A stretch of DNA of 64,000 bases, taken from NCBI GenBank assembly GCA_012033055.1, contig JAAUPR010000012.1, forward strand, positions 1 to 64,000, written 5' to 3'. Below the pieces are notes generated by a model that was not told the origin of the DNA, did no database searches, and was given only the letters and a program-made list of their open reading frames with translations. A program made the translations under genes and the position numbers. This document shows, piece by piece, positions 31,233 through 37,451 of the stretch. The stretch's first letter is position 1. Each line of letters opens with the position of its first letter. This stretch comes from Limnothrix sp. RL_2_0 (lineage in GTDB: Bacteria > Cyanobacteriota > Cyanobacteriia > Cyanobacteriales > MRBY01).

Positions 31233-34200
31233 ATGGAAAGTTCAAGTCCCTTCTTTGACGCTTTCATTTCCTATGGAAGAGCGGACAGTAAATCTTTTGC
31301 AACAAAACTCTTCGAAAGGTTGGAGGCGATCGGCTTAGATGTTTGGTTTGACCAAGAAGACATTCCTTTGGCCGTAGATTTTCAAGAACAGATTAATAAC
31401 GGCATCGAAAAAACACACAATTTTATTTTTGTCATTGCGCCCCACTCCGTCAATTCTCCCTATTGCCTCAAAGAAATTGAATTAGCGATCAAATTAAACA
31501 AACGCATTATTCCAATTCTTCATGTCGAAGAAATCACGCGGGAACTGTGGCAGTCGCGAAATCCTGATGGCTCAGATACAGATTGGGCAAACTATCAAGA
31601 ACAAGGCAAACATACTAGTTATGTTCATATCCATCCCGTCATCAGTAAGATCAACTGGATTTTTTTTCGTGAGGCTTTAGATGATTTTGAAGTTTCCCTT
31701 GAAGGACTAATTAGTGCGATCAAGAAACATGAAGATTATATCCATAAGCATACTGAATATCTCAACAAAGCACTGGAATGGTCCCGTAATCAAAAGCGAA
31801 ATCAGTATCTTTTAAAGGAGGAGGAGAAAAGACAGGCTGGCACTTGGTTGAAATACAAGTTTGTTGATGAGCAATCCCCCTGTTTGCCAACGAGTCTCCA
31901 CAGTGAATTTATCTGTGAAAGTATTAAGCAAGCCCAAGGTTTAATGACCCAAGCTTGTCTCTGTTATGTGCGGCAACCTTTTAGGGAGCAAAAGGAGCTG
32001 AGCATTACGGAAAAAATTCGTGATGATTTGTTAGCGAACTGTATTGTGACTGCAGACAATTGTGCCAATTTTCAGACGGCCCAAGATTTTGATGCGGCGA
32101 CGCGACGGAATATTGAGTTAGCTGATAATTTTATTTATTTTGTCTCACCAAAATCTCTACAAAATGACTATTGTCAATTGCAGTTTCAGTATGCTTTTCA
32201 ATATAATAAAAGGCTGATTTTTTTGCTGATCAAGGATACGCCCAGTGAACTTTATCCTGGTACGTTAGATGAAATCAATGTGATTGATTTTTCTGATGTG
32301 GAAACTGCGGAAAATTATCGGTTAAGTCTTGATGCTTTACTGAATCTTTTGGGAGAGGATGAATATTATCACGAATGTCATAAACGTCTTTTCGTTAAGG
32401 CTTTGAAATGGCAGGAACAGCGACGAATCGATAGTATGCTCTTGCGGGGCCATCAGCTAGATGTCTTTGAGGATTTACTGAAGATTTCGAATCAGCGTAA
32501 ATTTCAGCAGTTTATTCATCTTCAAAAGGAGTTTTTAGGGGCGAGTGCTGAACAGGTTTCCCAGGCGGAAATCGAGATTTTTATTGCTTATGATCTGACG
32601 AATATTGATTTCGCAACCAAACTAAATGAAAGCTTAGAATATCAAGGTAAAATTACTTATTTTGCCCATGATCATGCGGATCTGTCTGGAGATTTTCAGG
32701 GGGATGTTCACCAAGGAATTGTGAGTGGGGCGAATTTTTTGTTGGTGATTTCTCCGGCGGCGATCGCCTCGTCCACTTGTGTGTCTTATCTAGAACATGC
32801 CAAAAGTTTAAGTAAGCGTCGTTTAGGGGTGATGTGCCAGCCGACAGAGCTATCCCAGGTCGAAGCTGTGTTTACGGATGAGCAGTGGGTTGATTTTAGT
32901 CGGATTAATTCTGATTTTTATGCCGATTTTAGTCAACTAATTCGATTACTGGATACGGATAAAGCCTATGTCCAAAGTCATACAAAATGGTTGCAAAGAG
33001 CCCTTGAATGGGAGCAAAAGTATAAAACGCGAGATCTATTGTTGCGGGGGAATGAGCTGGCGATCGCCCAATATTGGCTAAAGGAAGCGGAGGAAGAAAA
33101 TAAGCGTCCGATACCAACAGATTTACAGCGAAAATTTATCCAGAGCAGTATTACCGAAAGCCTAAAAAATAAACGACGGCAAAAGTTTTTGTTTGGGGCC
33201 GTGAGTGTGGGCTTTGTCATCTCGACAGTTTTGGGGATTATCGCGTCCCGTAAATCCTATGAAGCTGCCGTGAATGAACTGAATGCTGTCACCAGTACTT
33301 CAGAAGCTCTTTTTTATTCCGGCAATATTCTTGAAGCTTTTGTGGAATCCATATCTGCTTGGACAAAGGAAAAAAAAATTAACCTCAATCGTGATGATCT
33401 CTATATCCAACAAGAAATTCGCCGCGTCATTAGCCAGTCCGTCTATCAGTTAAAAGAATCCAACCGTCTCATCGATCACGAAGCCGCAGTAAATGCAATC
33501 GATTACAGCACCGATGGCCAGCTACTGGTCTCTGGGAGCGCCGATAAATCAATTATCCTCTGGGATGAAAATGGTAACTATCTGGAAACCCTCGGTGAAA
33601 TTGGCCCCATTCGTAAAGGACATACGGCTAGTGTCAATACCGTTGCCTTTAGTCCCAGTGATGAATATATTGTGTCTGGTAGTGCTGATAGCAGTATCAA
33701 AATTTGGAAACGAGATGCAGATGGAGGATATCAATTTCGTCGGACAATTTATGGCTGTACCAGCAATAACTCCTGGTGTCATGGCCATAGCGACAGTATC
33801 AACTCAGTGGCCTTTAGGTATGACGGTCTAATCGCTTCTGCTGGCGCTGATCGAACTATTAAACTTTGGAATCTAGAAGGCGAGTACCAAGGTTCTGTTG
33901 GCGACGCAGCGAGTCAACATCAGGAGGCTATTAATTCCATCATCTTTAGTCCTGATGGTGGACTGATCATTTCAGCGAGCGCAGACGGCAGCAATTAAAT
34001 TGTGGAAAAAGCAGGCTTCCGGTAATAGCTTTAGTTTGTTCGATACCTTTGAAAGCTGTGACAATCAATTGTTGGACGATTGTCCGGGACATAGTGATGA
34101 TGTGAATGACGTGGCGATTACCCCCGATGGTCAAACCCTTATTTCGGCGAGTGATGACCAGACAGTGAAAATTTGGCAGCTTGATGGGACGCTCCTCAAT

Positions 34201-35559
34201 ACGCTGACAGGGCATCTGGATGATGTGGAAGCTGTGGACATTGATGATGCTATTCGAGGCGGCAAAATGATTGCTTCTGTGAGCCGTGATAAATCGATCA
34301 AGCTTTGGCATATAGATGGTTCGTTGTTAAGCACTCTCTCTGGTCATACAAGTCGTGTATATGATGTGGCTTTTAAGCCGAATGCAATGGCGATCGCCTC
34401 CGCTAGTCGAGACAAAACCATCAAACTCTGGCGTTTGAATAACGACATTGTTACCCCCTTTTATGGCCACAGTAGTCGCGTATACGACGTGACCTTCAGC
34501 CCGAACAATGAAATCATTGCTTCCGCCAGCCGCGATCAAACAGCGAAACTGTGGGATCACGAGGGCAATCTTCTCAGAACCCTCGTAGGACATACTGCCG
34601 AAGTCGAAAAAGTGACCTTTAGTCCCGATGGTCAATTGCTGGCTACCGGTAGTTGGGATTACACCATTAAGCTATGGCAAACGGATGGTGTGCAGATCGC
34701 CGATCTGCTCGGGCATACGGGGTCGATCGCCAGTGTTGACTTTAGCCCTAAGGAAGCAATTATTGCCTCCGTCGCCGCTGATAAAACCCTACGGCTATGG
34801 GATTTTGCTGGCAACCTAATTCAGACATCCCAGCTGAGTGGCGGCAGAGCTTACGATATCGAATTTAGTTCAGACGGACAATTAATTGCCATTGCCGTTG
34901 GCAACAGTGTTCAAATTTGGGAGCGGTTATCAACGGGGCAATATCGCATCATTCACAAAATAGGGGGTTGTCAACTACTAGACAGCAGTTGTAATAGCCA
35001 TACCGATGATATCGAAGAACTTTCGTTCAGCCCCGACAATTCGATAATTGCTACTGGTAGCCGGGATTCGACAGTCAAAGTGTGGGATTTAGAAGGTACA
35101 TATCTCTATACATTAAGCGGTCATGATAGCGAAGTAGAAGGGGTTGATTTTAGTCCCATCGGCAACCAACTTGTCTCAGCCAGTCGGGATGGAACATTAG
35201 TTGTCTGGCAACACCTACCGAGTTTAACGGCGGCGATCGCCAGCATTGCCCATGGCAAAAGAACAGAATTTGATCTAGACAGCCCCCCACCGATCACTAG
35301 TCACGTTTTAAAAGGACACAGTGCCGAAGTCTATGCCGCGACATTTAGTTCAGACGGCAAACAACTGGTCTCATCAAGCGCGGATAAAACAATTATTTTC
35401 TGGGAGTTGGACGCAGCTTTAAACTTAGATAGACTGATCGCGTACGGGTGTAATTGGACTCAGGACTATCTCAAGACCCCCGAAGTAGAAAAATCACGAC
35501 CACATGTTCACACGCTTTGTCATCACAAGAAGCACGAATCTCCAGAAGAAAAACCCTAA
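31233..35559 (+). pseudogene. Membrane-anchored triple-TIR / 14-repeat WD40 protein, split by a frameshift
   Basis: Two frames (31233-33998 and 34000-35559) are one gene. Removing G33991 turns ADGSN-stop into ADGTIKLWKK, the exact end of a WD40 repeat, and joins them into about 1440 residues. Order: TIR1 about 8-165 (FDAFISYGRADS, VWFDQEDIP, FVIAPHSVNSPYCLKEIELA); TIR-like 2 about 236-370 (ACLCYVRQPF, FVSPKSLQNDYC); TIR-like 3 about 445-570 (IEIFIAYDLTN, LVISPAAIASSTC). Each is followed by a similar helical segment with a W and an LLxxxxL pattern. A single membrane helix lies at about 650-672 (FLFGAVSVGFVISTVLGIIA). Fourteen WD40 repeats follow (four before or at the break, ten after), enough for two seven-bladed propellers, then a C-terminal GCNWTQDYL segment common in cyanobacterial WD40 proteins. 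TIR domains can cleave NAD+ or act as scaffolds. The ATG has AGGGG upstream. TIR1 looks most canonical; 2 and 3 look diverged. Possibly defence or stress sensing. Confidence 0.82.
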
Positions 35560-35589: not shown

Positions 35590-37451
35590 ATGACACTTAC
35601 CAATATCAATACAATTCATCACCTCCAGACTGCACCGGTACTGGGTGATTGTTCTGTTCAGGATCTATCCCGTTTAATTCCTTTTATTTCAGAACGTTTC
35701 ATTAAAGCCGAAGAGATTTTATTCGAGTCAGAGACCCCAGCAGATACTTTGTATTTGATCGTAGAAGGGAACCTAAAACTCATGTCGGGTAAACGGCAAG
35801 TGGATCTTGTGACCCAAGCTTTTCTCGGTGAAGAAGCTGCGATTGGCTACAAAGAATACACGCTTACAGGTGTTGCTGTAGAAGATTCGACCGTTTTAGC
35901 TATTGATAAAGATGCATTAATTAAGATCACATCTTCCAATCCTAATTTGGAAAAAGGCCTATATCAATCTTTTGTTAAACACTATTTATATCGAAAGCCA
36001 GAAATTGATCAGACTAATCGAGACCTCAGGATTTTAGGACTGTCCGATAATCCTAAAACCAAAGTAATTATTGGTTGGATTACGGCAATTATTTTACCTA
36101 TTATTGTTGCTCTAGTGGCAGCTCGTCCAGCTTTTGAAATTTCAGAAAGTATTCAGCAATTTTTAACGGTCTTTTCGCCCGCTTTAATCCTTTGGACTTT
36201 TGATTTAGTTGCAGCTTTTATTCCCGCAGTCATCATTGTATTTTCGCTACTTGTCCTTGATATTGCCCCCTCAAGTTTGGTGTTATCGGGATTTTCCTCG
36301 AGTAGCTTTTTTCTGGCTTTAAGTATTTTTGCTTTGGGAGCTGTTTTATCAAGTTCTGGACTTACCTACCGTTTGGTCTTGATTATCTTGAAAGCTGTGC
36401 CCCAGTCGCAGTTCTCCTATAGTGTGACGCTATTTCTGATTGGTCTATTGTTAACGCCGGTTCTACCTTCTGCTAATGGTCGTACCCAGTTAGTCGCGCC
36501 ATTGCTCGTCGATATGGTCGATGCGCTACAACTCAAGCCCTCTGGTAAGGGATCTACCCGCTTGGCTTTTTCGGCTTTTAGTGGGACGACATTTATGTCT
36601 TTTCTGTTTCTGAGTAGTAAACCGATTAATTTTGTATTGGTTGGTCTCTTACCGACTCAGGTGCGAGATCGATTTAGCTTGCCCTATTGGACATTGGCTG
36701 CTGGGGTTGCGGGATTGGTGGCGATCGCGGATTTATCATCATATCGAGTCTGCTCTTTCGTAATACAGAAGAAACCTCCCTGTCAAAACAAAACCTAGAA
36801 GCCCAACTAGATATCTTGGGGCCAATGAGTAACCTCGAATGGATGGCTTTAAGTAGTATCAGTATTTTTCTGATCGGAGTACTAACAGCCTCGATTCACG
36901 GCATCGCTATTCCTTGGGTTGGGTTACTCGTCTTCTGCTTTTTACTATTAGGAAAAGTGATCCTCAAAAGTGATCTTCGCACAAGTATTGACTGGCCATT
37001 TTTGATTTTATTAGCATCCTTAATTGGCCTATCCGAATCCATCGCTTAGATTGGTTTCGATGACTGGGTCAGTGAATATTTAGGCTGGTTAGGGGACTCG
37101 ATGAGGAATAACTTTTCCTTATTTGTGTTGCTATTTTCCGTTGCTATTTTTGCTGCAAGATTACTACTGCCGATGGCCTTGGTAGTTCCGCTGTTTGGCA
37201 CAATTTTCATACCCTTGTCAGAGGCAAATGGTGTAAATGCATGGTTGATTGCTTTTATTATTTTAGTTATTAGCGACGGCTGGTTCTTCCCTTACCAATA
37301 TTCTCCCAAGTTACTATTCTCGTCGATTACAGAAAACCTTGGATTTTTTAACGAAAAACTTTTGAATCAAGGTAATATGCTAATGAATATCATGCGCCTC
37401 TTCGTGATTTACACCTCCTTTTTCTACTGGAAATGGTTAGGGATTTTGTAG
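35590..37451 (+). pseudogene. Cyclic-nucleotide-binding domain fused to an SLC13/DASS-type permease, two lesions
   Basis: The first frame (35590-36798) starts MTLTNINTIHHLQ and has a CRP-like cyclic-nucleotide-binding domain over about residues 10-125 (ISERFIKAEEILFESETPAD, LYLIVEGNLKLM, FLGEEAAIGY). Membrane helices of a sodium/anion symporter follow from about 155 (FLIGLLLTPVLPSANGRTQL, FSGTTFMSFLFLSS). At about 36727-36731, inside a GCGATCGCGG sequence, one base is missing; the permease continues in another frame (FIIISSLLFRN, then LEWMALSSISIFLIGVL). That frame meets TAG at 37047-37049 and continues without shift to 37451 (DDWVSEYLGWLG, ISDGWFFPYQYSP). Repaired length is about 620 residues. 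It lies 30 bases after the TIR-WD40 gene, suggesting one operon. The ligand of the binding domain and the anion carried are unknown. Confidence 0.78.

What the first reader, a model, noticed from the sequence alone, without database searches (positions are those of the whole stretch)
31233..35559. Three TIR-type domains, one membrane helix and two predicted WD40 propellers in one protein
I count fourteen WD40 repeats after a single membrane helix and three successive TIR-like domains, each followed by a related helical linker. Only the first TIR looks canonical. Multiple TIRs in one chain could pre-assemble an active TIR array, with WD40 propellers as sensor. I know of no description of this arrangement.
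Basis: partly seen in the sequence, partly recalled or inferred. Interest (0 to 1): 0.75.

Follow-up and report, generated by a model that had tools for sequence, protein, structure and literature searches.

The report
Triple-TIR membrane receptor with WD40 sensor
A cyanobacterial gene, here broken by a one-base frameshift, belongs to a widespread and apparently undescribed bacterial family that chains three immune-type TIR domains on the inner side of a membrane helix and, very probably, a large WD40 sensor on the outer side, a bacterial parallel to Toll-like receptors, often encoded beside predicted membrane-pore proteins.

Summary
The gene (31233-35559, +) encodes three Pfam TIR_2 domains, each with a related helical linker, one membrane helix and exactly 14 WD40 repeats; a frameshift near 33990 splits it. 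It is not a one-off: 65 ORFs have three TIRs (mostly intact) and two have five, with relatives in Bacteroidota. TIR1, TIR2 and TIR3 each form one clade, so the triplication is old. The WxxxE-type glutamate is invariant in TIR1 (65/65) and present in all three TIRs in 53/65; the window (E/Q/Y) and its genus (E/Q/Q) lost it in TIR2 and TIR3. Positive-inside charges, paired cysteines and natural replacement of WD40 by CHASE2 put the TIRs inside and the sensor outside: a Toll-like topology. 21 of 69 triple-TIR genes lie within 5 kb of a DUF4231/SLATT membrane-protein gene (24 hits, 0.23 expected), some with a TRPM-type SLOG gene. Best model: a membrane receptor whose clustered TIRs make an ADP-ribose-type signal that opens a membrane effector. 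Enzyme activity and a defence role are inferred. No description was found in the searched papers. The window copy is probably dead; intact relatives should be tested.

The parts
31248..31607 (+). TIR1; Y77/E81 of the WxxxE-type motif (SPYCLKE), codon E81 at 31473-31475
   Evidence: Pfam TIR_2 83.9 bits; E81 aligns with the WxxxE Glu of AbTIR and Cat1; 65/65 conserved
31728..31937 (+). helical linker 1
   Evidence: homologous repeat in the family alignment; helices in the model
31938..32357 (+). TIR2; Gln at the Glu position (residue 317, 32181-32183)
   Evidence: Pfam 45.8 bits; family profile hits TLR6 2.9e-9 and Cat1 7e-8
32361..32552 (+). helical linker 2
32553..32927 (+). TIR3; Tyr at the Glu position (residue 519, 32787-32789)
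   Evidence: Pfam 41.3 bits; family profile hits BtTir 4e-8 and SARM1 1e-7
32961..33176 (+). helical linker 3, ending in a basic stretch (KNKRRQK)
33186..33242 (+). single transmembrane helix (residues 652-670)
   Evidence: hydropathy; N-in by positive-inside rule across the family
33477..33989 (+). WD40 repeats 1-4 (in ORF1), including a close Cys pair (GCTSNNSWC)
   Evidence: repeat HMM; sequence
33985..33999 (+). one-base frameshift inside WD40 repeat 4
   Evidence: absent from orthologs L041 and L042
34087..35403 (+). WD40 repeats 5-14 (in ORF2)
   Evidence: repeat HMM; Pfam WD40
35449..35520 (+). C-terminal paired-cysteine motif GCxW..DYL...LC
   Evidence: sequence; family pattern
35590..37448 (+). 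next gene, 30 nt downstream: cNMP-binding domain + Na/sulfate-symporter-type membrane protein; broken here (frameshift at 36729, stop near 37049), intact in G089 at the same place

Best explanation
The gene is a recently broken member of a receptor family: [TIR + helical linker] x3 - one membrane helix - 14-bladed WD40 (two seven-bladed propellers). SHOWN by sequence: the architecture, its conservation, the old triplication, the invariant Glu of TIR1, and the linkage of part of the family to SLATT and SLOG genes. STRONGLY INDICATED: TIRs in the cytosol, WD40 outside the membrane with disulfides. INFERRED: ligand binding or clustering of the outer propellers brings together chains that already carry three TIRs each, so a small cluster suffices to build the head-to-tail TIR assembly that completes the NAD+ site; TIR1 (in most relatives all three) then makes an ADP-ribose-type signal, and where a SLATT 2TM protein, with or without a TRPM-type SLOG, is encoded next door, that signal opens it and permeabilises the membrane, killing or arresting the cell as defence or programmed death. 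In the window's genus only TIR1 would be catalytic and TIR2/TIR3 would act as scaffold; the adjacent cNMP-binding membrane protein may take the effector's place (weak).
For: Three TIRs. Conserved family; Bacteroidota and plasmid members. One triplication. E81 in 65/65, EEE in 53/65; alignment to AbTIR and Cat1. Topology: K+R before the helix exceed those after in 61 of 66, never fewer, and in 11 of 12 after thinning to <60% identity, p 5e-4; Cys after the helix even in 53/64 and 9/10 thinned; WD40 replaced by the extracytoplasmic sensor CHASE2 in L054, L070, L073, L088 and Kovacikia minuta. Partners: 24 of 53 DUF4231/SLATT hits in 32 genomes within 5 kb of a triple-TIR gene, 0.23 or fewer expected; 9 of 24 LSDAT, also found blind by clustering of flanks. 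SLATT as a predicted ADPr-responsive permeability effector: PMC7159879, PMC9503650.
Against: No activity was measured; TLR-type TIRs carry the same Glu (chicken TLR15 aligns), so Glu does not prove NADase. About two thirds of triple-TIR genes have no SLATT within 10 kb, the window's locus included (some lie at contig ends). A few members lack the membrane helix. The only useful structure model is shallow (3 sequences, pTM 0.53), so domain packing is unknown. No ligand or phage link is known. The window copy itself is split.
Confidence: 0.5

Rival explanations
1. Non-enzymatic scaffold: the three TIRs only recruit other TIR or SLOG proteins after outside sensing, as TLR TIRs do, and no NAD+ is consumed.
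For: TIR2 and TIR3 lost the Glu several times; TLR TIRs with the same Glu act as scaffolds (established knowledge; alignment); TIR2 family profile is closest to TLR6.
Against: Glu invariant in TIR1 and kept in all three TIRs in 53/65; TIR3 profile close to BtTir and SARM1; linkage to SLATT and LSDAT genes fits a nucleotide signal.
Confidence: 0.25
2. The WD40 part faces the cytosol: the hydrophobic helix is only an anchor and the propellers sense intracellular phage or stress products, as in STAND-WD40 proteins.
For: Related caspase-nSTAND1-WD40 proteins (L010) are usually thought to sense inside; three members have no helix.
Against: Positive-inside bias, even cysteine counts and CHASE2 swap; helix-less L066_12520 lost the second terminal Cys and has eight irregular ones.
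Confidence: 0.2
3. The window gene is a dead remnant in a decaying locus, with nothing to explain beyond pseudogenisation, or its frameshift is an assembly error.
For: Frameshift here, and a frameshift plus stop in the next gene; draft genome in 200 contigs; degenerate TIR2/TIR3 motifs.
Against: Both halves still align end to end at 60% and 55-56% with intact orthologs, with no other stop; the family itself is intact elsewhere.
Confidence: 0.05

Closest known systems
Toll-like receptors and mollusc Tolls with tandem TIRs (PMC4929906)
   Same: outside sensor, one membrane helix, cytosolic TIR(s)
   Different: opposite domain order (TIRs N-terminal), WD40 or CHASE2 instead of LRR, three TIRs, bacterial; likeness of plan, not shown descent
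Thoeris (TIR ThsB + ThsA with SIR2-SLOG or TM-macro; PMC11204291)
   Same: TIR signal maker with a SLOG or membrane effector in some loci
   Different: no ThsA; the TIR protein is a large membrane receptor; partners are SLATT/LSDAT; no Thoeris model reached its cut-off
SLOG/SLATT nucleotide-centred conflict systems and TIR-SLATT neighbourhoods (PMC7159879, PMC9503650)
   Same: TIR next to a 2TM SLATT pore candidate
   Different: the passages read do not describe a triple-TIR transmembrane receptor with WD40 or CHASE2
Cyanobacterial effector-TM-CHASE2 and STAND-WRAP proteins (metacaspase-TM-CHASE2, PMC3501461; 14-bladed WRAP with a TIR-STAND partner, PMC9218822)
   Same: N-terminal effector, membrane helix with outside CHASE2, or a 14-blade WD40 array
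   Different: effector is three TIRs; no STAND NTPase
SARM1 / AbTIR / Cat1 NADases
   Same: TIR fold and WxxxE-type Glu
   Different: single TIR per chain; they oligomerise through other domains or ligands

Membership tests
TIR domain superfamily (Pfam TIR_2) | profile match over the curated cut-off for each segment | tested here: met
   three stretches, 83.9, 45.6, 44.1 bits against 28; TIR2 and TIR3 alone
NADase-type TIR | catalytic Glu of the WxxxE-type motif in TIR1 | tested here: met
   E81, 65/65
NADase-type TIR | same Glu in TIR2 and TIR3 of the window | tested here: not met
   Q317 and Y519; met in 53/65 family members
NADase-type TIR | NAD+ cleavage | not testable with these tools
   needs protein
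Thoeris | ThsA effector next to the TIR gene | tested here: not met
   window neighbours are carB and a cNMP-binding symporter
Thoeris | equivalog model score over cut-off | tested here: not met
   ThcB4 46.5 bits against cut-off 220; only partial PADLOC ThsB hits
STAND/NLR | NTPase between effector and sensor | tested here: not met
   only linkers and a membrane helix lie between; Kovacikia and Bernardetia members show only TIR, ThsB_TIR and CHASE2
Toll-like receptor plan (works like) | TIR inside, sensor outside, one membrane helix | tested here: inconclusive
   three indirect lines agree; no experiment
TIR-SLATT/SLOG conflict system | SLATT or SLOG gene beside the TIR gene in the family | tested here: met
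   21/69 with DUF4231, 9/69 with LSDAT within 5 kb
TIR-SLATT/SLOG conflict system | SLATT or SLOG gene beside the window's own gene | tested here: not met
   the genome's only DUF4231 and LSDAT hits are on another contig, C62

The most novel reading that the evidence does not exclude
A bacterial transmembrane immune receptor with Toll-like topology: outside WD40 or CHASE2 sensor, three tethered cytosolic TIR enzymes, and a separate TRPM-type SLOG plus SLATT pore that reads the TIR-made ADP-ribose signal, an ADPR-gated permeability circuit like SARM1/TRPM2 in animals.
Probability: 0.3. Interest if true: 0.85.

Novelty: new variant of a known kind. Interest (0 to 1): 0.64.

Why it matters
Well-studied bacterial TIR immune enzymes are mostly cytosolic, with one TIR per chain. 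A receptor that senses outside the cell and carries three TIRs in one chain would show how a bacterium can preset the threshold for TIR assembly, would parallel Toll-like receptors in plan, and ties TIR signalling to SLOG/SLATT membrane effectors. Natural members with one, three or five TIRs, and with one, two or three intact active-site motifs, make the question of why TIRs must oligomerise directly testable.

Tried and rejected
Single-gene oddity: rejected. Chance or mis-called TIR2/TIR3: rejected. Programmed frameshift: rejected, as orthologs are one open frame. Phage or viral origin: no relative in viral contigs. Conserved partner in the window's own locus: only a cNMP-binding symporter, shared with G089 and G072. 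Histidine kinases beside 13 loci: judged background of a very common family. AlphaFold of the Cytophagales full-length relative: useless, pLDDT 37. TIR-TIR packing could not be read, as coordinates are not given. Literature searches for three, tandem or multiple TIRs with WD40 found only eukaryotic tandem TIRs.

Full report
Observation. ORFs 31233-33998 and 34000-35559 are two halves of one gene: aligned with intact orthologs in the same genus (G072 1471 aa, G089 1469 aa), the first half ends and the second starts at the same residue, at 60% and 55-56% identity and with no other stop. The junction holds a one-base frameshift. Pfam finds three TIR_2 domains over the cut-off, also when TIR2 and TIR3 are scanned alone. 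Profiles of TIR2 and TIR3 with relatives match solved TIRs (TLR6, Cat1, BtTir, SARM1). AlphaFold with three sequences gives three five-stranded alpha/beta units, each followed by helices (pLDDT 73, pTM 0.53), and Foldseek ranks TIR-bearing structures first (SARM1, AbTir, TLR, SPARTA, Cat1). A repeat HMM counts 4 + 10 = 14 WD40 repeats; 42 relatives also have exactly 14. The genome is cyanobacterial (phycobilisome genes).

Family. A search of 245 genomes of the order gave matches in 156; in 32 of them (my count from the table) the match is strong enough to be a triple-TIR gene. Among fetched ORFs, 65 (the window included) have three TIRs, two have five, and a few have one or two. Three-TIR homologs also occur in Cytophagales (L008, L009; Bernardetia plasmid WP_338815537.1) and on a plasmid of Kovacikia minuta (WP_224346713.1). 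The domain tree puts all TIR1, all TIR2 and all TIR3 into separate clades: one old triplication. In the five-TIR proteins the order is TIR1-TIR2-TIR1-TIR2-TIR3 by tree position.

Active site. Y77 and E81 of TIR1 fall on the WxxxE motif of AbTIR and Cat1. The Glu is present in TIR1 of all 65, in all three TIRs of 53, and is replaced in TIR2 or TIR3 in 12, never in TIR1. The window has E/Q/Y and its genus E/Q/Q, so the loss came before the frameshift. The Glu is necessary, not sufficient: a TLR aligns with it too.

Topology. Lys and Arg before the helix outnumber those after it in 61 of 66 proteins, never the reverse; after thinning to <60% identity, 11 of 12 (sign test 5e-4). Cysteines after the helix are few and even in number in 53 of 64; 26 proteins have just two, mostly about 20 residues apart at the C-terminus; thinned, 9 of 10 even, against 5 of 10 on the TIR side. 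Relatives replace WD40 by CHASE2, which the literature treats as an extracellular sensor and which has a precedent in a metacaspase-TM-CHASE2 protein with the same deduced topology (PMC3501461). CHASE2 forms often have a DUF928-like neighbour (annotated in Kovacikia; a sequence cluster that I read as DUF928 without a Pfam check). Together these favour TIRs inside and sensor outside.

Partners. Clustering of flanking ORFs, without prior expectation, found a DUF4231 family beside 13 loci, an LSDAT SLOG family beside 9 and a 359-aa SLATT protein beside 5. Pfam names them DUF4231 with SLATT_3 or SLATT_1, and LSDAT_prok, 'SLOG in TRPM'. Over 32 genomes, 24 of 53 DUF4231 hits lie within 5 kb of a triple-TIR gene, 0.23 or fewer expected; 21 of 69 triple-TIR genes in 15 genomes have one. 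The nominal p of 2e-42 ignores relatedness, but 15 genomes in several families remain. L097 reads LSDAT - SLATT - TIRx3 on one strand with short gaps. SLATT is predicted to be a nucleotide-responsive membrane effector, and TIR-SLATT neighbours are reported in phages of Firmicutes (PMC7159879, PMC9503650). About two thirds of the genes, including the window's, lack such a neighbour; the window's genus has a cNMP-binding symporter gene about 30 nt downstream.

Mechanism. Step 1, outside sensing: indicated by topology and sensor swaps. Step 2, clustering of tethered TIRs: inferred from known TIR assembly enzymes (SARM1, AbTIR, Cat1). Step 3, ADPR-type product: inferred from conserved Glu and fold. 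Step 4, SLATT pore: inferred from linkage and published prediction. None has been tested by experiment.

Novelty. The parts are known kinds; the combination is not described in the papers I could search. I rate it a new variant of a known kind.

Noticed in passing
window 35590-37448: cNMP-binding + Na/sulfate-symporter-type gene directly downstream is also broken (frameshift at 36729, in-frame stop near 37049), while intact in G089 at the same place; two neighbouring broken genes suggest local decay or poor assembly.
   Followed up: partly
L097 1-6282, L084 1265-12953: Operon-like LSDAT(SLOG)-SLATT-TIRx3, and alternating SLATT-TIRx3-SLATT-TIRx3 arrays.
   Followed up: yes
L061 1372-6834, L085 677-5944: Five-TIR proteins (1821 and 1756 aa) in the same genus as the window (G089); L085 lacks the membrane helix.
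   Followed up: partly
L053 6640-7299, L059 2269-2946, L044 4717-6939: Conserved Rossmann-like 220-aa neighbour without Pfam match between TIRx3 and DUF4231 (the L044 version has TPR-S); perhaps a new SLOG-like sensor.
   Followed up: no
L066 2484-16533, L069 2431-16203: Three triple-TIR genes in a row; the third lacks both the membrane helix and the second terminal cysteine.
   Followed up: partly
L109 5998-8505: Bernardetia plasmid form: TIRx3 - membrane helix - coiled coil with no WD40 or CHASE2, with transposase genes upstream.
   Followed up: no
G000 C62:5198-6284: The window's genome has an LSDAT-DUF4231 pair on another contig, which might serve the TIR genes in trans.
   Followed up: no
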